A stretch of DNA of 36,707 nt from NCBI GenBank assembly GCA_016868015.1, contig VGIF01000015.1:1-36707 (forward strand). The letters are read 5' to 3'. A program made the position numbers and the translations under genes. The notes under the pieces are model-generated. The model was not told the DNA's origin. It worked only from the letters and a program-made list of their open reading frames with translations, and ran no database searches. Of this stretch, positions 6,735 through 35,639 are shown piece by piece. Each line of letters begins with the position of its first letter. The first letter of the stretch is position 1. The DNA is from Betaproteobacteria bacterium. GTDB taxonomy: Bacteria; Pseudomonadota; Gammaproteobacteria; Burkholderiales; SG8-41.

Positions 6735-8101
6735 TGCGCGTAGCCGAAGCGGCGTTGGCGCTCGCCGCCGAACATCGCGGCGGCGATGTCACGTTTATGA
6801 GCGTAGGCACGGACAGCCGCGCGCTGCAACCGCAGGCGTTGTTTGTCGCGCTGCGCGGGCCGAATTTCGATGGGCATCAGTACATCGGCGCCGCGCGCGC
6901 GGGCGGGGCGGTGGCGGCGATCGCGGATACGGCGGGCGCGGCATTAGCGCCGCCGGACATGCCGTTGATCATCGTCAACGACACGCAGCAGGCGCTCACG
7001 CGGCTCGCATCCGCCTGGCGCAGCCGTTACCACGGCCCGCTGCTAGCGCTCACCGGCAGCAGCGGTAAAACCACGGTGAAGGAAATGCTTGCGGCCATCC
7101 TGCACGAAGTGGCGGGCGACGCGGTGCTCGCCACGCGCGGCAATCTCAATAACGAAATCGGCGTGCCGTTGACGTTGCTTCAGTTGCGCGCGCACCACCG
7201 TTACGCGGTGCTCGAACTGGGCATGAATCACGCGGGTGAAATCAGCCGGCTCACCCAACTCGCGCGCCCCGATGTGGCGTTGATTAACAACGCCGGGCGC
7301 GCGCACATCGAGTTTCTCGGCAGCGAAGAAGCCATCGCGCACGCCAAGGGCGAGATCTTCGAAGGGCTTAGCGCCGCGGGCACCGCGCTCATCAACGCGG
7401 ATGATCGCTACGCGCCACTTTGGATAAAAAACATCAATAAAATCAAATACTTACGATTTGGCCTTAAACGGGCGGCCGACATTAGCGCGAGCTACGCGCT
7501 GCACGCGTTGCACAGCGAAATCGAGTTGCGCACCCCCGCCGGCACGGTAAGCACCACCCTCAACGCGCCGGGCTTGCACAACGTGCATAACGCGCTCGCG
7601 GCGTGCGCCGGCGCCACGGCGCTAAACGTGCCGCTCACGGCCATCGCGGCGGGGCTGGCGAAATACGCGGGCGTCAGCGGCCGCTTGCAGCGCAAGACGG
7701 CGCGCGGCGGCGCCACCGTGATCGACGACACCTACAACGCCAATCCGGAATCGATGCGCGCGGCGATCGAGGTGCTGGCGCGCGTGCCGGGCCGGCGTTT
7801 ACTGGTGTTGGGCGACATGGGTGAGCTGGGCGAACGCGCCGAGGCATGCCATCGCGAACTGGGCGACTACGCGCGCGCCGCCGGCATCGAGCGCTTGTAC
7901 GCGCTGGGCGAACAATCCGCGCACGCCGTGGCGGCGTTCGGCGTGGGCGCGCGCCACTTCGCGACCATGGATGCGTTGACGGCGCAATTGACGGCGGAAC
8001 TCGCGCCGGTGCTCACCGTGTTGGTGAAGGGCTCGCGGTTTATGCAAATGGAGCGCGCGGTGGCGGCGTGCACCAATGACATTTCGGCGCCGCACCCATG
8101 A
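6731..8101 (+). CDS. murF: UDP-MurNAc-tripeptide--D-Ala-D-Ala ligase MurF
   Basis: [22 protein letters not shown]...[19 protein letters not shown]...[22 protein letters not shown] at 6731 overlaps the murE stop. Confidence 0.95.
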
Positions 8102-8159
8102 AGCCTGCCATGACATCCGGCGGCAACGGCCCCGCTGCGGTTGCGATGAGAGGAAGCGC

Positions 8160-9245
8160 ATGCTGCTAGAGCTCACACAATGGCTGGCGAAGGACATCCG
8201 CGCCTTTAACGTGTTCGGCTATATCACGTTGCGCGCGGTACTGGCGGCGCTCACCGCGCTGGTGATCACCTTCATGATCGGGCCGGCGATGATACGCAAA
8301 CTGGCGGCCTACAAAATCGGCCAGTCGGTGCGCGACGACGGACCGAAGACGCATCTCACCAAGGCCGGCACGCCCACCATGGGCGGCGCGCTGATTTTGG
8401 TGGCGGTGACGGTGACCACACTGCTGTGGGGCGATTTGCAAAACCGCTTTGTGTGGGTGGTGCTGCTGGTGACGCTGGGCTTTGGCGCGATCGGCTGGGT
8501 CGACGATTACCGCAAGGTGGTGCATCGCAATCCCAAGGGCTTGTCGGCAAAGGCCAAGTTTTTCTGGCAGTCGGTATTCGGGCTTGCCGCAGCGCTTTAT
8601 ATCGCCACCTCCACCAACCTGCCGCAGCAGACGGAGTTGATCGTACCGTTTTTCAAAACGGTGGCGCTGCCGCTGGGGGTGATCGGCTTTGTCATATTGA
8701 CCTATTTTGTCATCGTCGGCACCAGTAACGCGGTGAATCTCACCGACGGCCTCGACGGGCTGGCGATCATGCCCACGGTTATGGTGTGCAGCGCGTTGGG
8801 CGTGTTCGCCTATGTCGCGGGTAACGTGATCTTCGCGCGTTATCTCGGTTTTCCGTTCATCCCCGGTGCGGGCGAGCTGCTGGTGATTTGTGCGGCGATC
8901 GCCGGCGCGGGGCTCGCCTTTCTCTGGTTTAACGCCTATCCGGCGGAAGTGTTCATGGGCGACGTCGGTGCGCTGGCGTTGGGCGCGGCGATCGGCACCA
9001 TCGCCGTCATTGTGCGTCAGGAAGTCGTGTTGCTGATCATGGGCGGCGTGTTCGTGATCGAGACGCTGTCGGTGATTATCCAGGTGCTGTCCTACAAGAT
9101 GACCGGCAAGCGCGTGTTCCGCATGGCACCGCTGCATCACCATTACGAGTTAAAGGGCTGGAAGGAGAGTCAGGTGGTGGTGCGTTTTTGGATCATCACC
9201 ATGATGTTGGTGCTGGTGGGCTTGTCGACGTTGAAGTTGCGCTGA
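8160..9245 (+). CDS. mraY: Phospho-MurNAc-pentapeptide transferase MraY
   Basis: [31 protein letters not shown]...[12 protein letters not shown]...[11 protein letters not shown]...[12 protein letters not shown]. Confidence 0.96.
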
Positions 9246-10627
9246 TGGCGATCGCGCTTAAAGGAGCGAAGGTGCTGGTGCTTGGCTTGGGCGACACGGG
9301 GTTATCGATGACGCGCTGGCTCACGCGGCAGGGGGCGCGCGTCAGCGCCGCCGACACGCGCGCCGCGCCGCCGCAGGCGCAAACGCTGGCGCGCGAGTTG
9401 CCGCAGGTTCGACTGCGTTGCGGGCCGTTTGAGCGTGGGCATTTCACGGGTATTGATTGGATCGCGTTAAGCCCCGGCGTCGACCCGCGCGTGGGCGAAC
9501 TGGCCGCGGCGCTAAAGCGCGGAGTGCCGGCGGCGGGCGACGTGGAACTGTTCGCGCAAACCTTGCAAACAAAAAAATCCGCTGCGCGCGTGTTGGCGAT
9601 CACCGGGTCCAACGGCAAGAGCACGGTCACCGCGATGTGCAACGCAATGTGCCTAGCGGCGGGGCTCGATACGGTGATGGCCGGCAACATCGGTTTGCCG
9701 GTGCTCGAGGTGTTGACGGAAATCGACAACGGCCGCGCGATGCCCGACATGGTTGTGCTGGAGCTGTCGAGTTTTCAGCTGGAAACCACCGCGAGCCTGA
9801 GGCCGGCCGCGGCGACGGTGTTAAACCTTTCCGAAGACCACATGGATCGCTACGACAGCTACACCGATTACGGCGCGGCCAAGGCGCGCATCTTCGCCGG
9901 CGGCGGCGTGCAAGTGTTAAACCGCGACGACGCGTTAACGCTGGCGATGGCGCGCGAGGGCCGCGACGTGGTTACCTTCGGTTTGTCGGCGCCCGCCAAC
10001 GACAGCGAATGGGGCTTGCGCGGCAGCGGCGCGGCGCAAACGCTGGTGCAAGGTGACAACGCGGTGATGCCGGTCAATGAACTGCCGCTCGCCGGTTTGC
10101 ACAACGCCGCCAACGCACTGGCTGCCGGTGCGCTGTGCCGGGTCGTGCAGGCGCCGCACGCGGCGATGGCGAGCGCCTTGCGCGGTTTTAAGGGGCTTCC
10201 GCACCGCGTAGAAAAAGTCAATAAAATTAAATGCATAGATTTTTACGACGACTCCAAGGGCACCAACGTCGGCGCCACTGTGGCGGCGCTCGCCGGCATG
10301 CAACAGCCGGTGGTGCTGATCGCGGGCGGCGACGGCAAAGGGCAGGATTTTTCGCCGTTGGCCGCGGTGGCGTCGCGCGCGCGCGCGGTGGTGTTGATCG
10401 GGCGCGACGCGCCGTTGATCGCTCATGCGTTGCAACCGGCCGGAGTGAAACTGCTGCGCGCGGGCGGCATGACCGAGGCCGTTCAAACCGCGTACCGGGC
10501 CGCGCAAGCGGGCGATGCGGTGCTGCTCTCGCCGGCTTGCGCGAGCTACGACATGTTCCGCAACTACGTGCACCGCGCCGAAGTGTTCGTCGAGGCGGTG
10601 CGGCAACTATCGCTGCGCGAGGGCTGA
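9245..10627 (+). CDS. murD: UDP-MurNAc-L-Ala--D-Glu ligase MurD
   Basis: [56 protein letters not shown]. Confidence 0.95.
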
Positions 10628-10628
10628 C

Positions 10629-11801
10629 ATGGTTTACCGCTCGATGAAAATGAACCCCGTGATGCAGGCCCCGCCCAGCGAATTCGACCGCACCATGGTG
10701 TGGCTTACCGTGTTGCTGCTGGGACTGGGGCTGGTGATGGTGTATTCGGCTTCCATCGCGGTGGCCGAGGCGGGGCGCGCCACCGGCAACCAGCCGATGT
10801 TTTATTTGTTCCGCCACGCGATGTTTTTGGTGGTAAGTGTGACGGCGGCGGTGATTGCGTTTCAAATCCCCACCTCGGTGTGGCAGCGCATGGCTCCGTA
10901 TTTGTTTGTGTTCGGCCTGCTACTGCTCGCGCTGGTACTGGTCCCCGGCATCGGGCGCGAGGTCAACGGTGCGCGGCGCTGGATACCGCTGGTGGTGTTC
11001 AACCTGCAGCCCTCCGAGCTGATGAAGGTGTTTGTCGTGCTCTATGCGGCGGATTACACCGTGCGCAAAGCCGCCTTCATGCACAGTCTGCGCAAGGGCT
11101 TTTTGCCGATGTTTGTCGTGATGCTGCTCACCGGCGGCTTGCTGCTGCGCGAGCCCGACTTTGGCGCGTTCGTGGTGATCACCGTCATCGCCATGGGCAT
11201 TTTGTTTCTCGGCGGCATGAACTGGAAATTGTTCGCCGGCTTGTTCGGTTTGCTGGTGGTGGGTTTTTGCATGCTGATCTGGACCTCGCCCTACCGGCTG
11301 CAGCGCGTGGTGGGTTTTATCGACCCGTGGGCGGATCCGTTCGGCAAGGGTTATCAACTCTCGCACGCGCTGATCGCCTTCGGGCGCGGCGAATGGTTCG
11401 GCGTGGGCCTGGGGGCGAGCGTGGAAAAACTGTTTTATCTGCCCGAAGCGCACACCGATTTTTTGCTGGCGGTGATCGCCGAAGAGCTGGGCTTCGTCGG
11501 CGTGCTGGTGATCACCCTGATGTTCTGCTGGATGGTGGTGCGCGCGTTCGCCATTGGCCGCCGCGCGGCGTTTCAAGAGCGGTATTTCGCCGCGCTGGTG
11601 GCGCAAGGCATCGGCCTGTGGATCGGCGTGCAGGCGATTATTAACATGGGGGTCAACATGGGCGTGCTGCCGACCAAGGGCTTGACGCTGCCATTGCTGT
11701 CGTTCGGCGGCAGCGCGATCACCGCGACTTGTGTGGCGATTGCGATTTTGCTGCGCATCGACTGGGAAGGACGGCAAGTGGCGCGAGGGTTTAAGGTATG
11801 A
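10629..11801 (+). CDS. ftsW: Peptidoglycan polymerase FtsW (SEDS family)
   Basis: Polytopic; [66 protein letters not shown]. Confidence 0.95.
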
Positions 11802-12877
11802 CGCGCACGATCATGATCATGGCCGGTGGCACCGGCGGACACATCTACCCCGCGATGTCGGTGGCGGACGATTTGCGCACTCAAGGCTGGCGCGTCGTAT
11901 GGCTGGGCTCGCACGCTGGCATGGAGGCGCGCCTGGTGCCGCCCAAGGGCTATGACATGGCATGGATCCGCTTTTCCGGGCTGCGCGGCAAGGGGCTCGC
12001 GCGCCTGCTGACGCTGCCGTTCAGTTTGCTGATCGCCTGCGCGCAAAGCGCGCGCGCGATCTTCACGCACCGCCCGGACGTGGTGTTGGGCATGGGCGGC
12101 TATGTGGCGTTTCCCGGCGGGCTGATGGCTTCGCTGTTGCGCCGGCCATTGGTGATTCACGAACAAAATTCGGTGGCGGGATTGACCAACCGTGTGCTCG
12201 CGCGCTTGGCCGATCGCGTGCTGATGGCGTTTCCCAACGCGTTCAAAAACAGCCGGCGCGGCATGTGGGTGGGTAATCCGGTGCGCGCGGACATCGCCGC
12301 GGTAGCCGCGCCGCAAGTGCGTTATGCCGCCGCGCCCAACGCAAAGCTTAACGTGCTGGTGATCGGCGGCAGCCAAGGCGCGGCGGTGTTGAACGAAACC
12401 CTGCCCAAGGCGCTGGCGTTGATGCCTGAAGCGCAACGTCCCAACGTCACGCATCAAGCGGGCGCCGCGCATATCGACACACTGCGCGCGGCGTACGCGC
12501 GGGCGGACGTGGCTGCCGAAGCTCTTGCATTCATCGACGACATGGCGGCGCGTTACGCGCGAGCGGACTTGGTGATTTGCCGCGCGGGGGCGTCCACGGT
12601 CACTGAAATTGCCGCGGCCGGCGTGGCCTCGCTGCTGGTGCCGTTGCCGTGGGCGGTGGACGACCATCAAACCGGCAATGCGCGCTTTTTGTCCGAACGC
12701 GGCGCGGCGCTGTTGATCCCGCAAGCCGAATTCACGCCGGAAAAAGTGGCGCAATTGCTGCAGGGCTGCACGCGCGAAAAGCTTCTCGAGATGGCGTGTG
12801 CGGCACGGGGCGCGGCGAAACCCGATGCCACGCAAGCGGTGAGTAAAATTTGCATGGAGTTGGCGCATGCGGCATAA
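11798..12877 (+). CDS. murG: UDP-GlcNAc--MurNAc-pentapeptide-lipid GlcNAc transferase MurG
   Basis: [61 protein letters not shown]. Confidence 0.96.
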
Positions 12878-14255
12878 GGTCAAGAAGGTTCATTTCGTGG
12901 GGATCGGCGGGTCCGGCATGAGTGGTATTGCCGAGGTTCTGCTTAATCTCGGCTATGAGGTGAGCGGCTCTGATCTCGCGTCCAATGCCGCCACACGCCG
13001 CCTCGTCAGCCTCGGCGCCGCCGTCCATCAGGGTCACGTCGCGCAAAACGTTGCCGGCGCCGACGCGGTGGTGGTGTCCACTGCGGTCAAAGCCGACAAC
13101 CCGGAGGTGCTCGCCGCGCGCGACAAACACGTGCCGGTAGTGCCGCGCGCGTTGATGTTGGCGGAGTTGTTGCGCTTAAAACAAGGCATCGCGATTGCCG
13201 GCACCCACGGCAAAACCACCACCACGAGCTTGGTGGCGAGTGTGCTGGCCGAAGGCGGGCTTGATCCGACGTTTGTGATTGGCGGGCGCTTGAATAGCGC
13301 GGGCGCCAACGCGCGCCTGGGTGCGGGCGAATTCATCGTGGTCGAGGCCGATGAGTCGGACGGCTCGTTTTTACACCTGCAGCCTGTGCTGGCGGTGATC
13401 ACCAACATCGATGCCGATCACATGGAGACTTATGGCCACTCGATGGAGCGTCTGAAACACGCGTTTGTGGAATTTACCCAACGCATTCCATTTTACGGCT
13501 CGGTGGTGTTGTGCCTGGATGATGCCAATGTAAGCGAGATTTTGCCCAAGATCGCCAAGCCGACGACGACCTATGGGCTGTCGCCGCAAGCGCAAGTGCG
13601 CGCGCTAGACGTGCAGGCAAGCGGTGGGCAAATGCGCTTTCGCGCGCTGCGCCCTGACGCGCCGCCGCTCGATGTCGTGTTGAATCTGCCGGGCATGCAC
13701 AATGTCTTGAACGCGCTGGCGACGATTGCGATCGCCACCGAGGTCGGCGTGGCGGACGACAGAATCGTCAAGGCACTGGCCGAATTCAAGGGCGTGGGCC
13801 GGCGCTTTCAGCGTTACGGCGACATCGCGACGGCCGATGGCGGCAAGGCCGTGGTGGTAGATGACTACGGCCATCACCCGGTGGAAATGGCGGCCACCGT
13901 CGCGGCTGCGCGCGGCGCGTTCCCAGGGCGGCGGCTGATGCTGGCGTTTCAGCCGCACCGCTATACGCGCACGCGCGACTGCTTCGAGGATTTTGTGAAA
14001 GTGTTGTCCACGGTGGACGCGCTGGTGTTGGCCGAGGTGTATGCCGCCGGCGAAGCGCCGATTGTTGCCGCCGACGGGCGCGCGCTTTCGCGCGCGGTGC
14101 GGCTCGCCGGCAAGGTGGAGCCGCTGTTTGTCGATAACGTGGCCGGCGTGGGTGACGCGATACGCGGCGCCGCGCGCGATGGCGACGTGGTGTTGATCAT
14201 GGGGGCAGGGTCGATTGGGGCCGTGGCGGGCAATTTGGTGTCGAGCGGCAAATGA
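12867..14255 (+). CDS. murC: UDP-N-acetylmuramate--L-alanine ligase MurC
   Basis: [67 protein letters not shown]. Confidence 0.96.
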
Positions 14256-14270
14256 AACGTCAACCCCTTT

Positions 14271-14361
14271 ACCGCAGAGGCGCAGAGGCGCAGAGAACAC
14301 GCAGAGAAAAACATTCGAGGAACTGCTCTGCGAAACCTCTGCGCCTCTGCGCCTCTGCGGT
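14271..14361. repeat. Large palindromic intergenic repeat, copy A (CGCAGAGG family)
   Basis: 36-nt left arm accgcagaggcgcagaggcgcagagaacacgcagag (14271-14306) and 36-nt right arm ctctgcgaaacctctgcgcctctgcgcctctgcggt (14326-14361). The outer 25 bp pair perfectly. Second copy at 34185-34281. Confidence 0.9.
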
Positions 14362-14385
14362 GAAGCTCTTAGCCTTGCCCCGCGC

Positions 14386-15309
14386 ATGAATATGGCAGAA
14401 CCACCCACCCCGCAAACCCTGCGCGGCGAGCTCAAATTAAACGAGCCGATGGCCAGGCACGTGAGTTGGCGCGCGGGTGGCGTGGCCGCACGCACCTACG
14501 CGCCGGCCGACCTGGATGACCTCGCGGTTTTTTTGCGTACACTTTCACCGACAGAGGGCTTGTACTTTTGCGGACTTGGCAGTAATCTCTTGGTACGCGA
14601 CGGTGGCCTTAACGCCACCGTCGTGTTTACGCATTGGGCGTTGCGGCACTTGCGTTTGTTGAGCACGGGAACGGGGGAAAGCGAAATAAAAATTTACGCC
14701 GGGGCTGGAGTTGCCGCCCCCAAAATCGCACGCTACGCTGCGCTGCATGGCGCGGCAGGGGCGGAATTTCTCGCCGGCATCCCCGGCACCCTCGGCGGCG
14801 CGTTGGCGATGAACGCGGGCTGCTACGGCGGCGAGACTTGGGATCTGGTGGATAGCGTGACCGCCATCGACCGCGCAGGACAACTGCACGAGCGCGCGCG
14901 CGGCGAATACCGCATCGGGTATCGCACCGTGGTGGCCCCGGCGCAGGAGTGGTTTGTCGCCGCGCGGCTGCGTATGGCATCGGGTGATGGTGAAAAATCT
15001 CGCATAAAAATCAAAGAGTTGCTGTCAAGGCGGATTGCCAGTCAGCCGCTGCAACAGCCCAATGCAGGGTCGGTGTTTCGCAACCCGCCGGGGGATTTTG
15101 CGGCGCGTTTGATCGAAGCGTGCGGGCTCAAGGGCGCGCGCATTGGCGGCGCGGAGATTTCGAGCAAGCACGCCAACTTTATCGTCAATGTGGCGGGGGC
15201 GAAGGCTGCAGACATCGAAGCGCTGATTGAGTTGGCGCAAAACAGCGTGCGCGAAAAATTTGGCGTGGCGCTTGAACGCGAAGTGCGCATTGTTGGGGAG
15301 CGCGCATGA
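14386..15309 (+). CDS. murB: UDP-N-acetylmuramate dehydrogenase MurB
   Basis: MNMAEPPTPQTLRGELKLNEPMARHVSWRAGGVA...GLGSNLLVRDGG...GIPGTLGGALAMNAGCYGGE...PNAGSVFRNPPGDFAARLIEACGLKG. Confidence 0.95.
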   Translation: MNMAEPPTPQTLRGELKLNEPMARHVSWRAGGVAARTYAPADLDDLAVFLRTLSPTEGLYFCGLGSNLLVRDGGLNATVVFTHWALRHLRLLSTGTGESEIKIYAGAGVAAPKIARYAALHGAAGAEFLAGIPGTLGGALAMNAGCYGGETWDLVDSVTAIDRAGQLHERARGEYRIGYRTVVAPAQEWFVAARLRMASGDGEKSRIKIKELLSRRIASQPLQQPNAGSVFRNPPGDFAARLIEACGLKGARIGGAEISSKHANFIVNVAGAKAADIEALIELAQNSVREKFGVALEREVRIVGERA

Positions 15310-15446
15310 GCTTCGGTAAGGTCGCTGTACTCATGGGGGGAGCGCGCTGGAGCGTTGAGCAGGGGCCCCAACGCAGTTGGGGATGTAACCGCGGAAGCGC
15401 GCTGGGCCGCCCAAGGGACGCCGTGAACTGGAGTGATGTTGCATGA
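15306..15446 (+). CDS. 46-aa mini-ORF starting with a duplicated Ddl N-terminus
   Basis: ATG at 15306 overlaps the murB stop (ATGA); TGA at 15444-15446 overlaps the ddl ATG (ATGA). Translation [46 protein letters not shown]. Not in the supplied track, whose shortest entries are 60 aa. Confidence 0.55.
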
Positions 15447-17093: not shown

Positions 17094-17097
17094 ACGC

Positions 17098-18345: not shown

Positions 18346-18355
18346 GCAACAAAAC

Positions 18356-18383
18356 ATAAGTATTTGATTATAAACGATTTTTT
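18356..18383 (-). promoter_or_regulatory. Candidate IHF-type site (dispersed AT-rich motif) in the ftsA-ftsZ gap
   Basis: Minus strand AAAAAA-N8-AATCAAATACTTA; matches WATCARNNNNTTR plus A-tract. Confidence 0.6.
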
Positions 18384-18407
18384 ATTCGGGCCATAAGGAG
18401 GCACACC

Positions 18408-21320: not shown

Positions 21321-22232
21321 TTGAACATCATTTTGGTTTCCGGCCGTTCCACCAAGGCGCGCACCTTATCGCTCACCAAGCGGCATATCGCGGTTGCCGT
21401 CACGGCGGTGTTGCTGACGGTACTGGTGCTTGCGGGAACGCTCAATTTTCTGGTCCTGCGCTTTGCGCCGGCGCTGCCATACTTGCAAGACCATTTGTCC
21501 GCGATTCAGGAAACGCGCCTTGCGCAAAACGAATCCTACATGCGCGATCACCTAAACGCGATGGCCAAACGCCTGGGCGAAATGCAGGCTCAATTGCTGC
21601 GCTTGGATACCTTGGGGGAACGGCTCGCCAAGCTGGCGGGGGTGGGCACGCAGGATCTGCAATTTAGCGAACTGCCTGGGCGCGGCGGCGCGAAATCGGC
21701 GGTGCCGAGCCGCGATTTCACGTTTAGTGAACTTTCCCAACAGGTCGACGTGTTAACCCGCCAAGTGGACGAGCGTGGGGACAAGTTAGGCGCCCTGGAG
21801 TCGCTGCTGCGGCTGGAAAATGCCCGTAAAAAGCTGATTCCGACCATGTTGCCGGTGCTCAGCGGCCACTACAATTCGAACTTTGGCTGGCGCATTGATC
21901 CCTTTACCGGCCGCATGGCGCGGCATGACGGCATCGACTTTGCGGCCCCTCACGGCGCACCGATCTTGGCTGCTGCGGGCGGGGTTGTGGTGTTCGCCGA
22001 GTACCACGGCCAATATGGTAATATGGTGGAAATCGATCACGGAAATAATCTGATCACGCGATATGCTCATGCATCGCGCCTGCTGGTGAACGTGGGTGAC
22101 ATGGTGTTGCGCGGCGCGAAGATCGCGGAAATCGGAAGCACGGGCCGTTCCACGGGCGCGCATTTGCATTTTGAGGTATTGCAAAATGGCGTAGCCGTTG
22201 ATCCCGCGCACTTTTTGCGATTGCCGGGCTAA
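21321..22232 (+). CDS. M23 family metallopeptidase (murein hydrolase-like)
   Basis: N-terminal TM; NSNFGWRIDPFTGRMARHDGIDFAAPHGAPILAAAGGVVVFA...HLHFEVLQNG; TTG start with GGGAGG upstream. Confidence 0.92.
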   Translation: MNIILVSGRSTKARTLSLTKRHIAVAVTAVLLTVLVLAGTLNFLVLRFAPALPYLQDHLSAIQETRLAQNESYMRDHLNAMAKRLGEMQAQLLRLDTLGERLAKLAGVGTQDLQFSELPGRGGAKSAVPSRDFTFSELSQQVDVLTRQVDERGDKLGALESLLRLENARKKLIPTMLPVLSGHYNSNFGWRIDPFTGRMARHDGIDFAAPHGAPILAAAGGVVVFAEYHGQYGNMVEIDHGNNLITRYAHASRLLVNVGDMVLRGAKIAEIGSTGRSTGAHLHFEVLQNGVAVDPAHFLRLPG

Positions 22233-22291
22233 GGCCGCGATCGATTGGGAATCAGGGCTATCGATAAGTACCCAAGAGTACTGACACGCGA

Positions 22292-22320: not shown

Positions 22321-22378
22321 ATGGGTAGCGGTTGGGCGAGTCGGTTCGGAATGCACCGCGAAAGAATCAAGGCAGTTC

Positions 22379-25255: not shown

Positions 25256-25274
25256 TTTCTCGTAGGAGTTTTTT

Positions 25275-26504
25275 ATGGCCGTAAACCTTTTGCCGCCCGA
25301 TCCCGCGGCGATGTTGCCGGTGGCGGGCGTCACCCTCGGTTTCGCAGAAGCGGGCATCCGCAAAGCGGGGCGCCGCGATTTGATGCTGATGCAATTCGCG
25401 CCCGGCACGCGCGTCGCCGGCGTGTTCACCCAAAACAGCTTTGCCGCGGCGCCGGTGCTGGTGTGCCGCGAGCATTTGCGCGCGAACGTAGCCGTACGCG
25501 CCATCGTGGTCAATGCCGGCAATGCCAACTGCGGCACCGGCGAGCAGGGCCTGGCGGCGGCACGCGCGACTTGCAGCGCGGCCGCGCGCTTGGTGGGTTG
25601 CGATGCTAAAGCGGTGTTGCCGTTTTCCACCGGCATTATTCTCGAACATCTGCCGGTGAATCGCATCGAAGCGGCGCTGCCGGCCTGTGTGAAATCGCTC
25701 GCGCCCAATCACTGGGCCGACGCCGCGGCGGCGATCATGACCACCGACACCGTGCCCAAGGGTGCATCGACTGCTGCTACCATCGGCGGCAAACGCGTGC
25801 ACGTGACCGGCATCGCCAAGGGCGTGGGCATGCTGCAGCCGAACATGGCGACCATGCTCGCTTACGTTGCCACCGATGCCGCGATTGCACAGCCGCTCAT
25901 GCTGCGCTTGGTGAAAGAAGTCGCCGACCGTTCGTTTAATCGCGTCACGGTCGATGGCGATACCTCGACCAATGATTCGTTTGTGCTGATCGCCACCGCG
26001 CAAGCCGGCAATGCCGAAATCACCAGCGCCGATCATGCGGATTACGTCGCGCTGCGCGAGGCAGTGCTCAAGGTGGCCATACCGTTGGCGCAGGCCATCG
26101 CGCGCGACGGCGAGGGCGCCACCAAGTTCATCACCATCCGCGTTAGCGGCGCGCAAGACGATGCGCAAGCCGCGCGTGTCGCCAAGGCGATTGCCCATTC
26201 ACCGCTGGTGAAGACGGCGTTTTTCGCCTCCGATCCGAATTTGGGGCGGTTGATCATGGCGATCGGCAACGCGGGCGTGGCAGATCTCGATACCTCGCGC
26301 GTGTCGATTTGGCTGGGCGACGTGCGCGTGTTGAGCAACGGCGGGCGCGACGCGGCGTATCGCGAGGAAGACGGAGCGCGCGTGATGAAGCCCGCGGAGA
26401 TCGACATCCACGTTGCGTTGGGCCGCGGCAGCGCCGAGCAAACGGTGTGGACCTGCGATTTTTCCTACGACTACGTCAAAATCAATGCCGAATACCGTAC
26501 TTAA
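25275..26504 (+). CDS. argJ: Bifunctional glutamate N-acetyltransferase / amino-acid acetyltransferase ArgJ
   Basis: [80 protein letters not shown]. Confidence 0.95.
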
Positions 26505-26531
26505 AAAATACAATAAAATCAAATACTTACG
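26503..26531 (+). promoter_or_regulatory. Candidate IHF-type site (dispersed AT-rich motif) between argJ and the ATPase gene
   Basis: AAAAAA-N8-AATCAAATACTTACG; 26511-26531 is identical to 7435-7455 in murF. Confidence 0.6.
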
Positions 26532-26557
26532 TCATTTCGCGGGATGCGGCTTGCAGC

Positions 26558-27457
26558 ATGAATGACACAATCAAATTGATCGGTCGCGCCGAGTCGTTGT
26601 TGCAGCGCCTGGAGCAGTTGTTGCCGCAAGCCGCCGCGCCGGTGGATTGGAAAGCCTCGATTGCGTTTCGCTGGCGCAAGACCAAGAATGGCTTAGGCGT
26701 GCTGCAGCCGGTCACGCAAGTGCACCGCATCCGGCTAAAGGATTTGCGCGGCATCGATGATCAAAAAGACCTGGTTGAACAAAACACGCGCCAGTTCGTA
26801 GCGGGCCATCCCGCGAACAACGTGTTACTGACCGGCGCGCGCGGTACCGGCAAATCGTCGCTGATCAAGGCGTTGCTCACCCAATACGCGCCGCGCGGTT
26901 TGCGCCTGATCGAGGTTGAAAAACAAGATCTCGTCGATCTGCCCGAAATCGTCGACCTCATTTGCAGCCGGCCCGAACGCTTTGTGTTGTACTGCGACGA
27001 TCTGTCGTTCGAAGCTGATGAACCGGGCTATAAAGCGTTAAAGGTAATCCTCGACGGCTCGGTGGCGGCGGCCTCCGAGAATTGCCTGATCTACGCCACG
27101 TCGAACCGCCGTCATCTGATGCCGGAGTTCATGGCGGAGAACCTCGAATACAAGCACCTTGGCGAGGAGATTCACCCCGGCGAAACTTCAGAAGAAAAAG
27201 TCTCGCTGTCGGAGCGCTTCGGCTTGTGGGTGTCGTTTTATCCGTTTGATCAGGACGAATACTTGAACATCGTCGCGGTGTGGCTCGAACACTTCAGCGT
27301 TAAAGGCGCCGGCACCGACGAGGTCAAACACGCGGCGCTGCAATGGTCGCTGCAGCGCGGCTCGCGCAGCGGGCGTGTCGCCTGGCAGTTCGCGCGCGAC
27401 TGGGCCGGTAAAAAAAGAATGCAGGCACGGCGCGCGGCCAGCGGCAAGCGCAAGTAA
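26558..27457 (+). CDS. ATP-binding protein, DUF815-type AAA family
   Basis: NNVLLTGARGTGKSSLIKALLTQY (Walker A), FVLYCDDLSFE (Walker B-like), IYATSNRRHLMPEFMAEN. Start at 26558. Confidence 0.85.
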   Translation: MNDTIKLIGRAESLLQRLEQLLPQAAAPVDWKASIAFRWRKTKNGLGVLQPVTQVHRIRLKDLRGIDDQKDLVEQNTRQFVAGHPANNVLLTGARGTGKSSLIKALLTQYAPRGLRLIEVEKQDLVDLPEIVDLICSRPERFVLYCDDLSFEADEPGYKALKVILDGSVAAASENCLIYATSNRRHLMPEFMAENLEYKHLGEEIHPGETSEEKVSLSERFGLWVSFYPFDQDEYLNIVAVWLEHFSVKGAGTDEVKHAALQWSLQRGSRSGRVAWQFARDWAGKKRMQARRAASGKRK

Positions 27458-27482
27458 CCGCGCCGCGCCGCGAATTACCGTT

Positions 27483-28424
27483 GTGAAAACCCGAAAGCGT
27501 ATCGAGGTGGCCGCGGCGGTGGTTTACGACGCGGGCGGCCGGTTTTTGCTGGCGCAGCGACCGCCGGGCAAGGCGTTCGAAGGCTATTGGGAATTTCCCG
27601 GCGGTAAAGTCGAGCCGGGCGAATCGGCGGCGGCGGCGATCTGCCGTGAATTGCACGAAGAGCTCGGCATCGACGCCGATGCGGCGTGCCCGTGGCTCAC
27701 CCGCGATTTCGAATATCCGCACGCCTCGGTGCGGTTGCGTTTTTTTCGCATTTACCAATGGCGCGGCGAGCCGCACGGGCGCGAAGGCCAACGCTTTACC
27801 TGGCAAACCGCCACGCAACTTGACGTCGCACCGATGTTGCCGGCCAATGAGCCTATCCTGCGCGCGCTCGAACTGCCCGACGTGTATGGCATCACCCAAG
27901 CCGAGGCCTTGGGCGCCGATGTGTTCTTGCAAAAGCTCAACGCCGCACTCGACAGCGGATTAAAGCTCATCCAGGTGCGCGAAAAAAACATGCCCGCGCC
28001 GCAATTGCGCGCGTTCGCGGCGCAGGTGGTGGCGGCGGCGCATCGGCACGGTGCGCGCGTGTTGATCAACAGCGATGTCGGGCTCGCGCGCGATATCGGC
28101 GCAGACGGCGTGCATTTGACGTCGCTGCAACTGCGCGCGTTGACCGCGCGGCCCGCGTGCAATTGGGTTGCCGCGTCGTGTCACACGCAAGCGGAAATTG
28201 AGGCGGCATCAAACATCGGAGCGGATTTCGCCGTGCTGGGCCCGGTGATGGCGACACCCACGCATCCCGGCGCGCCGATCTTGGGTTGGCGTGGATTTCA
28301 ACAAGCGGTGGCGGACACGCGTATTCCAGTGTACGCGCTGGGTGGCATGCGGCACGCGCATCTCGATGAGGCGCGCGGCGCGGGCGCGCACGGGATTTCA
28401 ATGCTGCGCGGCGCCTGGGCCTAG
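27483..28424 (+). CDS. Nudix hydrolase (MutT-like) fused to a thiamine-phosphate-synthase-like (ThiE/TenI) domain
   Basis: N-terminal [28 protein letters not shown] (Nudix box); C-terminal [18 protein letters not shown]...[19 protein letters not shown]...[21 protein letters not shown]. Confidence 0.9.
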
Positions 28425-28624
28425 TTCAGCTTGCCGTCGTCCGCCGGAAATTCCGCGTCATCGACGTCGTCGTACTCGACTACCGGTATGCGATAAGACT
28501 CGCTCGCCCACGCGCCCAAATCCATGGTCTTGCAATGCTCGGAGCAAAACGGGCGCCACGGGTTGTCGCTGCGCCACACCACCTTGTTGCCGCACCGCGG
28601 GCAATTCACCGAGCGCTGGGCCAT
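28421..28624 (-). CDS. yacG: DNA gyrase inhibitor YacG
   Basis: [42 protein letters not shown]: four-Cys zinc motif. Confidence 0.93.
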
Positions 28625-28636
28625 AGAGGTAGCGCG

Positions 28637-29392
28637 CTACAGGTTACAGAAAGTCAGTTCGAATTCGACGTCGGTATCGACCACCTTGGGCCGCTGTCCG
28701 CCGTCGGCGCTGGTGAAGCGGATATTGAGCGCGTACTTGTTGGCGCTGATTTCCGGCACGCACTGATAATTGCGCGATAAGCGTATGCGCAGCATTTGCG
28801 CGACCCGCCCCGCCATCATTTGCTGATACAAACCCTGGCGCGCCACCAGCGTGGTGCTCTTGCTGCTTTCGCGCAACAGCCGTAACACGACCACCACCGC
28901 TTCACGGATCGGCGTAAACGGCATCAGCCATTGCTGTAAATCGTGGCGGCGCTGTTCGCTGTTTTGCTGCAGCCAGAAGTGATAACTCGGCAAATCGAAT
29001 TCGCACACGCCGCCGGGGATGCTGGTGCGCTGTTTGATGCTCATCAACCAGTCGTTGTCGCGCAACTCCTGACCGACTTTGCCGGACGCCTGAAACAGTT
29101 GCGACGACGATTGATCAACCCTGGCCAAGATGTCGTTTAACGCAGCTTCCGACACATCCGGATTCTCGCGCAGCGATTCGAGCACGTGTTTTTGACGTTC
29201 GAGCTCTTGCAACAAATCCGATTTCAGATCGGCGCGGCTGGCGACTTCCAAAATCTCAAATACGGAAACCAGCGCCGCGTGATGTTCGTGCGCGTCCGGC
29301 TTGGCGAGGAAATATTCGACACGCTCGTACAAGTCCTCAAAGCGCAACAGCGTTCGTACGCGCTCGCTAAGCGGATACTCGTAGCTGATCAC
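28637..29392 (-). CDS. zapD: Cell division protein ZapD
   Basis: MISYEYPLSERVRTLLRFEDLYERVEYFL...; located next to yacG. Confidence 0.92.
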   Translation of the reverse strand: MISYEYPLSERVRTLLRFEDLYERVEYFLAKPDAHEHHAALVSVFEILEVASRADLKSDLLQELERQKHVLESLRENPDVSEAALNDILARVDQSSSQLFQASGKVGQELRDNDWLMSIKQRTSIPGGVCEFDLPSYHFWLQQNSEQRRHDLQQWLMPFTPIREAVVVVLRLLRESSKSTTLVARQGLYQQMMAGRVAQMLRIRLSRNYQCVPEISANKYALNIRFTSADGGQRPKVVDTDVEFELTFCNL

Positions 29393-29507
29393 AAGACGCC
29401 CGTGCCCGTTGCCGTTGAGAATGCGGGCAAGTATTCCCTAAAACGCCGGAAAAAGAAAGGGTTTGGCGCGTGCGCTGGGGCGCGCCATCGGCGCGGGCAG
29501 ACGAGCG

Positions 29508-30377
29508 CTAGAAGAGATTGAGATACTGGCGATTGATCGCCTGGCCGTGGAGCAGCGCAATCACGCCGGCGATCGCGAGATAAGGTCCGAAGGGTATCGG
29601 CGTCTCGCGGCCATGGCGCGCGAACACCATCATCGGGATGCCGATCACCGCGCCGACCACCGATGACAACAAAATAACCAGCGGCAGCATTTGCCAGCCA
29701 AGCCAGGCGCCGATCCCCGCCAGCAGCTTAAAGTCGCCGTAGCCCATGCCTTCCTTGCCGGTCAGCAGTTTAAACAACCAGTAGACCGACCATAGCGCGA
29801 GGTAACCGGCCGCCGCGCCGATCACGGCCGAGGTCAAATCGGTGTGCGTGCCGGCAACGTTGAACAACAGTCCCGCCCACAACAGCGGCAAGGTGATGTC
29901 GTCGGGCAGATAAAACGTGTCCAGATCGATGAACGTCAGCGCGATCATCGCAAAAACAAACAACAAGGCGCTGACACCGGCGAGCGTGGCGCCGAAGCGC
30001 CAAATCGCGTACCCGGCCAGCAAGCCAGTGATGAGTTCCACCATCGGGTAACGCGGCGAGATGCGGGTTTTGCAATTGGCGCATTTGCCGCCCAGCGCCA
30101 AATAACTGACGACCGGGATGTTTTGCAAGGCGCTGATGGGTTGCGCGCACGAGGGGCAACGGGAGCGCGGCACCAGCAGGTTGTAACGTTCAACGGGCGC
30201 CGGGCTTGTACCGGCCGGACTACCGCCCGCGTTGAGCTCGGCGCATTCGGTCTGCCATTGCCGTTCCATCATTTTGGGCAAGCGGTGGATGACGACGTTC
30301 AGAAAACTGCCCACGGCAAGGCCGAACAACACGGCTAGCGCGACGGCGATCAGCGGGACGGCGAGGGCGCTTAGCAA
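29508..30377 (-). CDS. pilD: Type IV prepilin peptidase PilD
   Basis: GLAVGSFLNVVIHRLPKMME, CPSC...CANC cysteines, FIDLDTFYLPDDITLPLLWAGL, GYGDFKLLAGIGAWLGWQ. Confidence 0.94.
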   Translation of the reverse strand: MLSALAVPLIAVALAVLFGLAVGSFLNVVIHRLPKMMERQWQTECAELNAGGSPAGTSPAPVERYNLLVPRSRCPSCAQPISALQNIPVVSYLALGGKCANCKTRISPRYPMVELITGLLAGYAIWRFGATLAGVSALLFVFAMIALTFIDLDTFYLPDDITLPLLWAGLLFNVAGTHTDLTSAVIGAAAGYLALWSVYWLFKLLTGKEGMGYGDFKLLAGIGAWLGWQMLPLVILLSSVVGAVIGIPMMVFARHGRETPIPFGPYLAIAGVIALLHGQAINRQYLNLF

Positions 30378-30436
30378 CGGCCTCTCCTGGCTTGCGCAAT
30401 CAACGGTATTTTTCCGGGCGCCGGCGTCGTGGCGGG

Positions 30437-31699
30437 TTAGACCACCGAACCCATCTTGAAGATCGGCATATACATGGCGATCACCATGCCGCCGATCAGC
30501 GTGCCGAGCACCACCATGATGATTGGTTCCATCAAGCTTGACAGGGCCGCCAGCGAGTCATCCACCTCGGCCTCGTAAAAATCGGCCACTTTGGAGAGCA
30601 TCGCATCCAGCGAGCCCGATTCCTCGCCGATCGATACCATCATCACCACCATGTTGGTGAACACTTTGGAATTTTCCATGGCGCTGGTGAGGCTGGAGCC
30701 GGTGGCGACTTCGCTTTGAATTTTTTTGGTGGCAGTGTAGTACTCGTGGTTGCCCGCTGCTCCCGCCACCGAATCCAGCGCTTCCACCAGCGGAACGCCG
30801 GCGGCGAACATGGTCGAGAGCGTGCGCGTCCAGCGCGCCACCGCGGACTTGCGGATCAGTTCGCCGAACACCGGCACGCGCAGCAGCAAACGGTCCATCA
30901 CGATTTGCATCTTGACCGAGCGCTTCCAGAAGTAGAAAAACGCGTAGCCGCCGGCGCCAATGCTGCCGAAGATAAGCCACCAATATTGGACAAAATACTC
31001 GGAAATGGTCATCACCAAAACCGTCGGCGCCGGGAGATCTGCGCCGAAGCTGGCGAACACTTCTTTGAATGCCGGGATTACCCAAATCATGATCACCGCG
31101 GTAATCACAAAGGCCACCACGATAATCGACACCGGATAAAACAGCGCCGATTTGATCTTGCTCTTGATGGCAAGAATCTTTTCCTTGTACGTCGCCAGGC
31201 GGTCGAGCAGGCTATCCAAAATACCGGCCGATTCACCCGCGCCGATCAGGTTGCAAAACAGGGCATCGAAATACAGCGGATGTTTCTCAAATGCCTGTTT
31301 GAGACTGGCGCCCGTTTCCACATCGGTTTTGATGTCGAGCAGCAGCCGTGACACCGCCGGGTTGGCATGGCCCTTGCCGACGATGTCGAAGGCTTGCAAC
31401 AACGGCACGCCGGACTTCATCATCGTCGCGAGCTGCCGCGTGAACAAGGAGATATCTTTTTCGGTGACCTTGCCGCCGCGTCCTGCCCGCTGCTTTTTGA
31501 CCGAATCGACTTTGATGCCCTGGCGGCGCAATGTGGCGTTGACCTGAGCTTCGCCCGCCGCGCGAACTTCGCCGCGCACGGTTTTACCGGCCTTATCCTT
31601 GCCTGTCCAAACGTATGTGGCTTCTTGTGAAGCGGCAGCTTTTCTGCCTGCCCCTGCGGTTGCTGTTGCCGTCGCCATCGCACCCCCTATTTTACTCAA
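30437..31699 (-). CDS. pilC: Type IV pilus inner-membrane platform protein PilC (T2SS F family)
   Basis: YVWTGKDKAGKTVRGEVRA...DISLFTRQLATMMKSGVPLLQAFDIV...EPIIMVVLGTLIGGMVIAMYMPIFKMGSVV. The start may be the internal ATG giving MATATATAG. Confidence 0.93.
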   Translation of the reverse strand: MSKIGGAMATATATAGAGRKAAASQEATYVWTGKDKAGKTVRGEVRAAGEAQVNATLRRQGIKVDSVKKQRAGRGGKVTEKDISLFTRQLATMMKSGVPLLQAFDIVGKGHANPAVSRLLLDIKTDVETGASLKQAFEKHPLYFDALFCNLIGAGESAGILDSLLDRLATYKEKILAIKSKIKSALFYPVSIIVVAFVITAVIMIWVIPAFKEVFASFGADLPAPTVLVMTISEYFVQYWWLIFGSIGAGGYAFFYFWKRSVKMQIVMDRLLLRVPVFGELIRKSAVARWTRTLSTMFAAGVPLVEALDSVAGAAGNHEYYTATKKIQSEVATGSSLTSAMENSKVFTNMVVMMVSIGEESGSLDAMLSKVADFYEAEVDDSLAALSSLMEPIIMVVLGTLIGGMVIAMYMPIFKMGSVV

Positions 31700-31763
31700 T
31701 CAAACCAATGAGTTAGAGAAACTTGCCGATTATCTCTCCGGGTGCCCAACGGGTAAAGCCTGT

Positions 31764-33089
31764 TTAGCCGTTAACCGTGGCATTGTGCTCATCTTGTTGC
31801 GCATTTGGTGGTACGGCGCGCACTACCTTCACAATACGGCCTTGCGTGTGCACGATCTGCAGCGGCACCCCGGCGATTTTGATGCTGGTGTTGGGCTCCG
31901 GGATGTCCTGTAGATTCTCCAGCAAAAGCCCGTTCAAAGTCTTGGGCCCGTCGAGCGGAAACCGAAAGCCCAGCTTGCGATTGAGTTCCCGTAACGGCGT
32001 GCCACCCTCGATCAAATAGCTGCCATCGGCCTGCTTGGTGTAGCCGCCCGCGCGCATCGGCGAGTTGGTGGTGAATTCGCCGATGATTTCCTCGATGATA
32101 TCTTCCAACGTGACCAAGCCTTGCAACTCGCCATATTCGTCGACGATCAAGCCCAGCCGATCCTGGCTTTCCTGGAAGTTTTGCAACTGCATGAACAGCG
32201 GCGTGCCCGACACGATGAAGTACGGCTCGCGCACTAGGGCGAACAGCGATTCTTGGGAGACATCGTCGCGATTGATCAGGTTTAGCGCATGCCGCACGCG
32301 CAGCGTGCCGATGATTTCATCCATGTCCTCGCGAAAAACCAATACGCGCCGATGATGCGCGGTGAGCAACTGCTGGGTGATTTCCTCCAGCGGCGAGGCA
32401 AGGTTGATCAGCTCGATTTGGCTGCGCGGCACCATGATATCGTCGACCGTGATCGCCTCCAATTCGAATAGGTTGAGCAGAATGGCGCTGTGCTTTTTGG
32501 GCAGGATGTTCGACGATTCCAGCACGATGGTGCGCAACTCCTCGGCCGACAGGGCTTGCGTGCCGCCGTCTTGCTCGCGTATGCGAAACAGCCGCAGCAG
32601 CGGCTTTAGCAGCGTGTCGGTCGATTTCGCGAGCAACGCCACAAACGGCGCCGAGATAAACGCCAAGGCGCGCATCGGCCATGCCGCAAGTCGCGCGATG
32701 CCCTCGGCGTTGTATTGCGCCAGGCGTTTGGGCACCAGTTCGCCGATGACGATGGTGGCGTAGGTGATGCCCAACACGATCACTGTCGTGGCGGCAATGT
32801 TTGACAGTTGCGCCTCAAAGCCGAACGACTGAAACCATTTTGAGAGCGGCGCGGCGAACACCGCTTCACCGACGATACCATTTAACAGGCCGATCGAGGT
32901 GATGCCGATCTGGATGGTTGATAAAAAGCGCGTGGGATCGCCGCATAGTTTTGCCGCTGCCGCGGCGAGGCCGTCGCCGCCGTTGGCGAGCGTCGCCAGC
33001 CGTGAGCGGCGCGCGGTGAGCAGCGCCACTTCCGACATGGCGAACAACCCGTTTAAAAAAATCAGCGCGGCGAGTAACAATATGTCCAT
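31764..33089 (-). CDS. CNNM/CBS-domain hemolysin-family (CorC/TlyC-like) transporter-associated protein
   Basis: MDILLLAALIFLNGLFAMSEVALLTARRSRLATLANGG (DUF21-like), CBS-like IVDEYGELQGLVTLEDIIEEIIGEF, CorC_HlyC-like C-terminus. Confidence 0.9.
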   Translation of the reverse strand: MDILLLAALIFLNGLFAMSEVALLTARRSRLATLANGGDGLAAAAAKLCGDPTRFLSTIQIGITSIGLLNGIVGEAVFAAPLSKWFQSFGFEAQLSNIAATTVIVLGITYATIVIGELVPKRLAQYNAEGIARLAAWPMRALAFISAPFVALLAKSTDTLLKPLLRLFRIREQDGGTQALSAEELRTIVLESSNILPKKHSAILLNLFELEAITVDDIMVPRSQIELINLASPLEEITQQLLTAHHRRVLVFREDMDEIIGTLRVRHALNLINRDDVSQESLFALVREPYFIVSGTPLFMQLQNFQESQDRLGLIVDEYGELQGLVTLEDIIEEIIGEFTTNSPMRAGGYTKQADGSYLIEGGTPLRELNRKLGFRFPLDGPKTLNGLLLENLQDIPEPNTSIKIAGVPLQIVHTQGRIVKVVRAVPPNAQQDEHNATVNG

Positions 33090-33185
33090 GGTTTTGCTTT
33101 CATGCGTGCGCGGGCACACCGGGATTGATTGTATTTATCCCGTGCATCGGCAACAATCCGCGCACTGATTTAAAGGAGAAATGGC

Positions 33186-34166
33186 ATGTTGAATGTGGCT
33201 ATCTATGGTATGGGCAACTGGGGTTCGCGCTTGATCGCCTCGGTGCAGGGCAAAAGCGGCAAAATCAAATTTACCCACGGCATTACGCGTGACCCGGCGC
33301 GGCACCGCGAGGCTGCCGAAAAATTCGGCCTGCAGTTAACCAACAGCTACGCCGACGTTTTGCGCGATCCGCATGTCGACGCGGTGCTGATTGCCACGCC
33401 GCACTCCATGCATTGCCAGCATATTTGCGAAGCCGCGCGCGCCGGCAAGCATGTGTTTTCCGAAAAACCGATCACGCTAACCGCCGCCACCGCGCGCGAA
33501 GCGGTCGCGGCCACTCAGGCCGCGGGTGTTACGCTGGGCTTGGGCTTCAATCGTCGCTATGCGCCGTCCTTCGTCGAAATGCAACGCCGTCTGCTCGCCG
33601 GCGAAATCGGCGAGCTGCTGCATATCGAAGGCCATCACTCCGGCCCGACGGGTTTTAATCTCAAACCGAACTACTGGCGCTCCACGCGCGCCGAGTCGCC
33701 CGCCGGTGGCATGACGCCGCGAGGCATCCACACCATCGACGCCATGATCAACCTGGGCGGATTGATCAGTGAAGTGTATGCGCACAGCGAACGGCGCAAG
33801 CTGCAATTGCCGATCGACATGGACGACACCACCTCGATGCTGCTCAAGTTCAAAAACGGCATCACCGGTTATTTCGCCGTGCTGTTCATCACCGGCGAGT
33901 TGTATCGCGTGCACGCGTTCGGCACCAAAGGCTGGCTCGAATTACGCGGCGACACCGAACTCATTGCCTGCGGGCTCGAAGGTAAGCCGCAGCGCATCGA
34001 GTTGCAGCCGGCGGAGAAGGAGCGGGCCGAGCTCGAAGCGTTTGCCGATGCGGTGGCGGCGAAACAACCCTACATGGTGCCGCCGGAACAGGCGGTGAAT
34101 GGCATCGCCGTCATTGAAGCGATAGTGGCGTCGGCCGAGAGCGGGAATGTCATGAAAATCGGTTAA
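33186..34166 (+). CDS. Gfo/Idh/MocA family oxidoreductase
   Basis: VAIYGMGNWGSRLIASVQ, HVDAVLIATPHSMHCQHICEAARAGKHVFSEKPITLT. Confidence 0.93.
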   Translation: MLNVAIYGMGNWGSRLIASVQGKSGKIKFTHGITRDPARHREAAEKFGLQLTNSYADVLRDPHVDAVLIATPHSMHCQHICEAARAGKHVFSEKPITLTAATAREAVAATQAAGVTLGLGFNRRYAPSFVEMQRRLLAGEIGELLHIEGHHSGPTGFNLKPNYWRSTRAESPAGGMTPRGIHTIDAMINLGGLISEVYAHSERRKLQLPIDMDDTTSMLLKFKNGITGYFAVLFITGELYRVHAFGTKGWLELRGDTELIACGLEGKPQRIELQPAEKERAELEAFADAVAAKQPYMVPPEQAVNGIAVIEAIVASAESGNVMKIG

Positions 34167-34184
34167 TCACCGATGAAAACAGCA

Positions 34185-34281
34185 TCACCGCGAAGGCGCA
34201 GAGGCGCAGAGAACTGCCGCAGAGAAAAACGTGCGAAGTTTTCTCCGCGATTCCTCTGCGTCTCTGCGCCTCTGCGGTGAA
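34185..34281. repeat. Large palindromic intergenic repeat, copy B (CGCAGAGG family)
   Basis: tcaccgcgaaggcgcagaggcgcagagaactgccgcagagaaaaac...cctctgcgtctctgcgcctctgcggtga. Shares gcgcagaggcgcagagaac and cgcagagaaaaac with copy A. Confidence 0.88.
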
Positions 34282-34298
34282 GGGTTGGTTTTTGGGAA

Positions 34299-35465
34299 CT
34301 ACACAGCGTTTGCCATTGCCGCAAACGCCTGCGCAATATCCGTTATGAGATCCTCAGGGTCTTCCAAGCCGATGTGCATGCGTATCACCTGCCCATCCTC
34401 GGCCCATTTCGTCGCGGTGCGCAGCGGCGCGATATTGGGCGCGGTGACCAGCGATTCGTAGCCGCCCCAACTGGAGCCGATGCCGAACAGTTTTAGCGCA
34501 TCAACGAACGCCGCCACTTGTTTTTTGTTCACCGGCTTTAACACAAACGAAAACAGCGAGGCCGCGCCCTCAAAGTCGCGTTTCCAAATCGCGTGACCGG
34601 GGTCGCTTTCCAGCGCGGGGTAGAGCACGCGCTTGACTTCGCCGCGCTTTTCCAGCCAACGCGCAACGTTCAACGCATTAGCCATTTGCTGCTTCATGCG
34701 CACGCCGATGGTGCGAAAGCCGCGCAGCGCAAGATAACAATCGTCCGCGCTCGAACAATAACCGTAATCCGCCACCGCGCGCCGTACTGGCAGCCAGTAT
34801 TTTTCGTTGGTGACGATCAGTCCCATCATCACATCGGAATGGCCGACGATGTATTTGGTGCCGGCGTGGATTGACACATCGACGCCGTGCTCGAACGATC
34901 GAAAAAAATAGGGCGTGCCCCAGGTGGTGTCGGCGAGCACCGGTATGCCGTGCGCATGCGCTTCGCGCGCGATCGCCGGGATATCCTGCATCTCAAACGA
35001 GAGCGAACCAGGCGCTTCGCAGAATATTGCGTAAGTATCTGATTTTATTAACTTTTTTATTTGGGCCCCGATCAGCGGATCGTAGTACTCAATCTCCACG
35101 CCAAACGCCTTCAAGCGCCGCTCGCAAAAACTGCGCGTCGGGCCATACACGCTATCGGCCACCAGCAAATGCGAACCGGTTTTCGCAAACGCGCACAACG
35201 GCGCCGCAATCGCGGCCAGCCCCGAACACACCGCCACCGCGTTGTGGCCGCCTTCCATTTTCGCCACCGCTTCTTCCAGCGCCCAATGCGTGGGCGTGCC
35301 GTGAATGCCGTAACGCGGCGTTTTGTAATCGTCAGAAGGGCGCGTGCTGTAGGTTTCCAGATCGGGGAACACGATAGTGGACGCGCGGTACACCGGCATA
35401 TTGATGGTGCCGTGGGTTTCGCGCGGGTTGCGGCCGGAGTGGCCGAGCAGAGTATCTTTTTTCAT
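34299..35465 (-). CDS. metC: Cystathionine beta-lyase (PLP-dependent Cys/Met metabolism family)
   Basis: MKKDTLLGHSGRNPRETHGTINMPVYRASTIVFPDLETY...VLADTTWGTPYFFRSFEHGVDVSIHAGTKYIVGHSDVMMG. Confidence 0.88.
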   Translation of the reverse strand: MKKDTLLGHSGRNPRETHGTINMPVYRASTIVFPDLETYSTRPSDDYKTPRYGIHGTPTHWALEEAVAKMEGGHNAVAVCSGLAAIAAPLCAFAKTGSHLLVADSVYGPTRSFCERRLKAFGVEIEYYDPLIGAQIKKLIKSDTYAIFCEAPGSLSFEMQDIPAIAREAHAHGIPVLADTTWGTPYFFRSFEHGVDVSIHAGTKYIVGHSDVMMGLIVTNEKYWLPVRRAVADYGYCSSADDCYLALRGFRTIGVRMKQQMANALNVARWLEKRGEVKRVLYPALESDPGHAIWKRDFEGAASLFSFVLKPVNKKQVAAFVDALKLFGIGSSWGGYESLVTAPNIAPLRTATKWAEDGQVIRMHIGLEDPEDLITDIAQAFAAMANAV

Positions 35466-35639
35466 GTTTGGTTTACTTCGCCGGTTTACCTTTAAAATCG
35501 CATTATGCCCGTTGGTTCAAACCGCTTGCGGATTGCACCGCGGCGGAACGTTTCGCGGCGCCCCGGTTCCAGTTGGCAGGGCGCCAAGGCCATTTTAAAA
35601 AGTCAATTAAATCAAATATTTAAAATTTTCAGGGACAGC

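What the first reader, a model, noticed from the sequence alone, without database searches (positions are those of the whole stretch)
7426..35622. Dispersed ~30-bp AT-rich motif with IHF-site architecture, repeated across the dcw region inside and between genes
Six sites share A-tract (5-6 A), 8-9 nt, then AATCAAATACTTACG or a close variant: 7426-7455 (+, in murF), 10212-10237 (+, in murD, degenerate), 18356-18383 (-, ftsA/ftsZ gap), 26503-26531 (+, argJ/ATPase gap), 35030-35058 (-, in metC) and 35597-35622 (+, upstream of the methyltransferase). Five of the six match the published IHF consensus WATCARNNNNTTR, and the A-tract lies on the side and at about the spacing known from strong IHF sites such as lambda H'. 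The degenerate NNNN positions are also conserved (ATAC in four, ATAT in one). This suggests either a family of strong nucleoid-protein sites under sequence-specific selection or a copied element. The surroundings are GC-rich, so chance AT-rich matches should be rare. I estimate well under one expected perfect core if A/T are each near 18%, a composition I assumed and did not measure.
Basis: partly seen in the sequence, partly recalled or inferred. Interest (0 to 1): 0.75.

Follow-up and report, generated by a model that had tools for sequence, protein, structure and literature searches.

The report
Evenly spaced genome-wide IHF-type DNA sites
This bacterium and its close relatives carry hundreds to about a thousand near-identical 39-base DNA sites that look like binding sites for the DNA-bending protein IHF, mostly between genes and at strikingly even intervals of about 4-7 kb, which suggests a sequence-encoded chromosome scaffold or, less likely, a new kind of DNA-uptake tag.

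Summary
All six sites exist; two more were missed. The host genome (GC-rich betaproteobacterial draft) has 821 matches to the 18-bp core (<=2 mismatches; reversed control 1). Aligned sites give a 39-bp motif: A-tract, then AAT[AT]AAATCARATACTTA, then an AT-rich tail, with A-tract and WATCARNNNNTTR in the layout of strong IHF sites. It is confined to four genera of one family: a strict IHF-architecture pattern gives 606 hits here, against 0-20 in some 570 genomes outside the family (one outlier, 36). It is not an inserted element: murF keeps its length, and orthologous positions are shared across species while flanks diverge. About 80% of sites are intergenic. Spacing is overdispersed in three genera (means 3.9, 6.7, 5.2 kb; CV 0.46-0.62 against 0.79-0.91 for random intergenic gaps), and intragenic sites fill long gaps. 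IhfA and IhfB are present with normal DNA-contact arms; HU was not found in the motif-rich genomes typed. Best reading: an evenly spaced array of IHF sites with an architectural role. Main rival: a DUS/USS-like uptake sequence. Binding and function are inferred, not shown.

The parts
7423..7461 (+). 39-bp site inside murF, in frame, no added length
   Evidence: PWM 52.6 bits; MurF alignment
10207..10245 (+). degenerate site inside murD
   Evidence: PWM 31.3 bits; hits at the same place in relatives
18349..18387 (-). site in the ftsA/ftsZ gap
   Evidence: PWM 41.0 bits
   Evidence: PWM 40.4 bits
   Evidence: PWM 32.1 bits; gene names
26499..26537 (+). site whose A-tract begins at the argJ stop codon
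   Evidence: PWM 58.0 bits; argJ ORF ends at 26504
35024..35062 (-). site inside metC (cystathionine beta-lyase), same strand as the gene
   Evidence: PWM 57.5 bits; gene name
35592..35630 (+). site at the start of the methyltransferase gene (start codon uncertain: 35505 or about 35640)
   Evidence: PWM 51.9 bits; ORF list and gene calls

Best explanation
The sites are strong binding sites for the host's own IHF (IhfA/IhfB), forming a genome-wide array of fixed DNA bends about every 4 kb (4-7 kb across the clade). Each bound IHF would wrap about 35 bp, A-tract arm and consensus arm, and bend it sharply, pinning loops or supercoil apices at set positions in a lineage where HU, the usual abundant architectural protein, was not found. 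Sites arise and are kept by point substitution, preferably between genes and inside genes mainly where no intergenic site is near. Shown: the array, its IHF-like anatomy, conserved positions, even spacing, presence of IhfA/IhfB, no HU match. Inferred: IHF binding, bending, and the architectural role.
For: A-tract and core in the layout of strong IHF sites (layout in PMC8421141 and PMC9519438). In the sister genus g7 the most variable positions are mainly the IHF NNNN, while C-A-A and T-T stay fixed. IhfA/IhfB arms intact; HU not found in G000, G001, G018, G019, G020. Overdispersed spacing in three genera; intragenic sites in unusually long gaps; near-equal strands. Literature simulations: IHF pins plectonemes and can divide topological domains (PMC9519438).
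Against: No binding data. Sister genera often have A where the IHF consensus has T, without a change in the IHF arms. Information content, 51 bits, far exceeds the 13 needed to locate sites, which hints at drive or a stricter reader. HU is also missing in some motif-poor genomes. Depletion between convergent genes is unexplained.
Confidence: 0.5

Rival explanations
1. A DNA-uptake (DUS/USS-like) sequence: the competence machinery of this clade prefers DNA carrying the motif, and molecular drive fills the genome with it. The IHF-like look would reflect a preference for bendable A-tract DNA, or a role of IHF in the process.
For: Hundreds of copies on both strands, origin by point change, mostly outside genes, dialects between genera; an even distribution is expected of uptake sequences (PMC7811141; PMC1939737). 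ComEC is present in nearly all motif genomes and missing in G009, which lacks the motif. USS also carry AT-tracts. 51 bits against 13.
Against: The full IHF layout would be a coincidence. The core of the sister genera is degenerate at the IHF NNNN. ComEC and ComP-type pilins are equally present in motif-less relatives. Intragenic share is about 15-22%, against 65% in H. influenzae and 35% in N. gonorrhoeae (PMC1939737).
Confidence: 0.27
2. Ordinary gene-regulatory IHF sites: each site helps a nearby promoter, and the array is simply a large IHF regulon.
For: Intergenic, rarer between convergent genes (0.49 against 1.2-1.5 per kb, P 0.0002), IHF-like sequence.
Against: No preferred orientation (26 same, 21 opposite) and tandem sites lean towards the upstream stop codon; spacing more even than a random choice of intergenic gaps; intragenic sites fill gaps; near-identical sequence over 39 bp is more than regulation needs.
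Confidence: 0.15
3. A mobile or copied short element (MITE-, REP- or Correia-like).
For: High uniformity of copies on both strands.
Against: No element ends or shared flanks beyond the motif; murF keeps its length and relatives carry intermediate sequences at the same residues; positions shared by nearly all g7 species.
Confidence: 0.04

Closest known systems
Strong IHF sites (phage lambda H' type, E. coli)
   Same: WATCARNNNNTTR core with an upstream A-tract, about 35-bp span (PMC8421141, PMC9519438)
   Different: E. coli has around 300 consensus sites (PMC8421141); here they are several times more numerous, nearly identical over 39 bp, and evenly spaced
DNA uptake sequences: USS of Pasteurellaceae, DUS of Neisseriaceae
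   Same: hundreds of copies, both strands, dialects, relatively even distribution, origin by point change, AT-tracts in USS
   Different: unrelated sequence, IHF layout, more strongly intergenic, no known receptor; uptake preference untested
IHF-containing repeats such as E. coli RIB/RIP and neisserial Correia elements (from memory)
   Same: dispersed IHF-like sites, largely intergenic
   Different: those are parts of larger palindromic or inserted elements; these are bare sites without element ends

Membership tests
IHF binding sites | consensus WATCARNNNNTTR | tested here: met
   72 of 83 sampled host sites match (these were chosen by a core pattern that includes it); sister genera are W at the T position
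IHF binding sites | A-tract upstream in strong sites | tested here: met
   70 of 83 have AAAA at -9 to -6, not part of the search pattern
IHF binding sites | host encodes IhfA and IhfB with intact DNA arms | tested here: met
IHF binding sites | specific binding and bending by IHF | not testable with these tools
   needs EMSA, footprinting or ChIP
DNA uptake sequences (DUS/USS) | strong genome-wide over-representation on both strands | tested here: met
DNA uptake sequences (DUS/USS) | competence genes present, tracking the motif | tested here: inconclusive
   ComEC family-wide except G009 and a few incomplete genomes; ComP_DUS pilin order-wide
DNA uptake sequences (DUS/USS) | preferential uptake of motif-bearing DNA | not testable with these tools
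   needs an uptake assay
Mobile short elements (MITE/REP/Correia) | insertion at occupied sites, or element ends | tested here: not met
   no length change in murF; no homology beyond the motif; shared positions

The most novel reading that the evidence does not exclude
A sequence-encoded nucleoid scaffold: in this betaproteobacterial clade IHF has taken over general chromosome architecture from a lost HU, and the genome has evolved up to about a thousand near-perfect IHF sites at a regular pitch of 4-7 kb.
Probability: 0.35. Interest if true: 0.92.

Novelty: new variant of a known kind. Interest (0 to 1): 0.74.

Why it matters
If IHF binds these sites, the chromosome carries a visible, evenly spaced map of its bends, and the question of what fixes nucleoid loops and supercoil domains becomes directly testable by ChIP and contact mapping. 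If it is instead an uptake sequence, it would extend that phenomenon to a family not known for it, with a new kind of motif built like a DNA-bending site.

Tried and rejected
Mobile or copied element: rejected by length conservation in murF and shared orthologous positions. Chance in AT-rich DNA: rejected by reversed-pattern and Markov controls. A dcw-specific feature: rejected, it is genome-wide. IHF arm residues co-varying with the T/A dialect: none found. HU loss as a sufficient cause: not supported, some motif-poor genomes also lack an HU match. ComP-type pilin as a discriminator: present across the order. Literature search for the motif string: two phage P22/Salmonella papers only, judged unrelated from their abstracts. 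Viral contigs: 22 single hits among 2.9 million contigs, not followed. Plasmid search with the murF site: no match.

Full report
OBSERVATION. All six sites are in the sequence at the given coordinates, and five match WATCARNNNNTTR. The window is 61% GC, with A 19.5% and T 19.1%. A PWM trained on sites elsewhere in the genome scores them 31-58 bits, against a maximum of 9.7 in 50 order-2 Markov copies of the window, and also finds 19742(-) and 20941(+). In the whole draft genome (4.55 Mb, 366 contigs) the 18-bp core has 821 matches with up to two mismatches, 413 and 408 per strand, while the reversed pattern has 0 and 1. A 10-mer over-representation test that knows nothing of the motif puts it first in this genome and in two relatives, G018 and G001, and among the top words of a third, G019.

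ANATOMY. Aligned sites give a 39-bp motif, roughly [AT]4 AAAA[AT][AT]nTn AAT[AT]AAATCARATACTTA[CT]G[AT]5, with faint AT-rich positions about one helical turn further out. Strong IHF sites carry an A-tract upstream of WATCARNNNNTTR and span about 35 bp (PMC8421141, PMC9519438); that the spacing equals lambda H' exactly is from memory. In 3000 column permutations none matched the IHF layout as well. The core was part of the search pattern, so only the A-tract half of that test is independent. Information content is 51 bits against about 13 needed to locate the sites.

DISTRIBUTION. The motif is abundant in most g1 genomes (absent from G009), in g6 and in most of g7, sparse in g8, and essentially absent from the five other genera of the family. 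G001 is a betaproteobacterial MAG (OMIN01, AM_0616), judged by its contig of identical length, 77,227 bases. A dialect-independent IHF-architecture pattern gives 606 hits in the host, 226 in G003, 155 in G019, 112 in G059 and 33 in G060. Among some 570 sampled Pseudomonadota outside the family nearly all have 0-9; the highest are G238 with 36 (control 3) and G377 with 20 (control 9). Sister genera often read AATAAAAACAAATACTTA, an A where the IHF consensus has T.

NOT AN INSERTION. MurF has no extra residues at the site. Motif-less relatives read like WRELAGNRRVVDFGL, the genus like W.KLVNKNKYLKFGL, and the host [15 protein letters not shown]. PWM hits recur at the murF and murD positions and elsewhere in the genus dcw regions. 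In a 20-kb alignment of 15 g7 species the main sites are shared by nearly all species with sequence at that place, while flanking DNA has diverged; the variable bases are mainly the IHF NNNN. That alignment had long gaps, so only the clean blocks (columns 4709-4778 and 22087-22242) are relied on.

POSITION AND SPACING. In 419 kb of the host, 82 of 96 sites lie outside called genes, and 76 of 97 in gaps of at least 40 bp; intergenic DNA is about 13-14%. Gene calls are my own and approximate. Spacing is overdispersed in three genera, G000, G019 and G018: mean 3.9, 6.7 and 5.2 kb, CV 0.57, 0.46 and 0.62, against 0.79-0.91 when distinct intergenic gaps are chosen at random (P <0.001, <0.001, and 0.003-0.011). 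Intragenic sites lie in longer gaps than size-biased chance (P 0.004, 0.095 and 0.025). Sites are rarer between convergent genes, 0.49 against 1.2-1.5 per kb (P 0.0002), which remains unexplained.

PROTEINS. The host has exactly two PF00216 proteins, IhfA and IhfB by best match, with intact arms. G047 and G064 have three matches, not all typed. HU is also missing in motif-poor G014 and G024, so the link is suggestive only, and absences in draft genomes need care. ComEC is present in nearly all the family, with or without the motif, and missing in G009. ComP-type pilins are order-wide.

INTERPRETATION. IHF binding is the most specific explanation of the sequence. Even spacing, gap filling and lack of orientation fit an architectural role, in line with simulations in which IHF pins plectonemes and divides topological domains (PMC9519438). 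The same statistics fit an uptake sequence kept by molecular drive, for which an even distribution is expected (PMC7811141), so that rival keeps substantial weight. Nothing here demonstrates binding, bending, uptake or any phenotype.

Noticed in passing
window 14265-14365 and 34178-34284: Two copies of a palindromic intergenic repeat built from GCGCAGAG / CTCTGCGCC units, unrelated to the IHF-like sites.
   Followed up: no
relatives G019, G018, G024, G015, G014 (L177-L196, L212-L216, L278-L289): Each sample is rich in its own short tandem words (GTGAACGG, CTTCACC, GTTCATC, GAGGATT, ATGAGGG), like heptamer tandem repeats that differ by genus.
   Followed up: no
family-wide PF00216 search: HU appears to be lost in a large part of this betaproteobacterial family while IhfA/IhfB are kept.
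   Followed up: partly
G009 (L148, L207-L211, L352-L354): Filed in the same genus but with a GC content of 48% in the sample, no motif, no ComEC match and a divergent second IhfB-like protein.
   Followed up: partly
G238 (another family of the order, 1.8 Mb): Outlier with 36 strict IHF-architecture sites against a control of 3; possibly a second, weaker case.
   Followed up: no
host genome sample (window and L157-L176): Two other over-represented words, GGGAACCCAT (15 seen, 0.25 expected) and CGGGAGAGGG (13 seen, 0.12 expected), belong to unexamined repeats.
   Followed up: no
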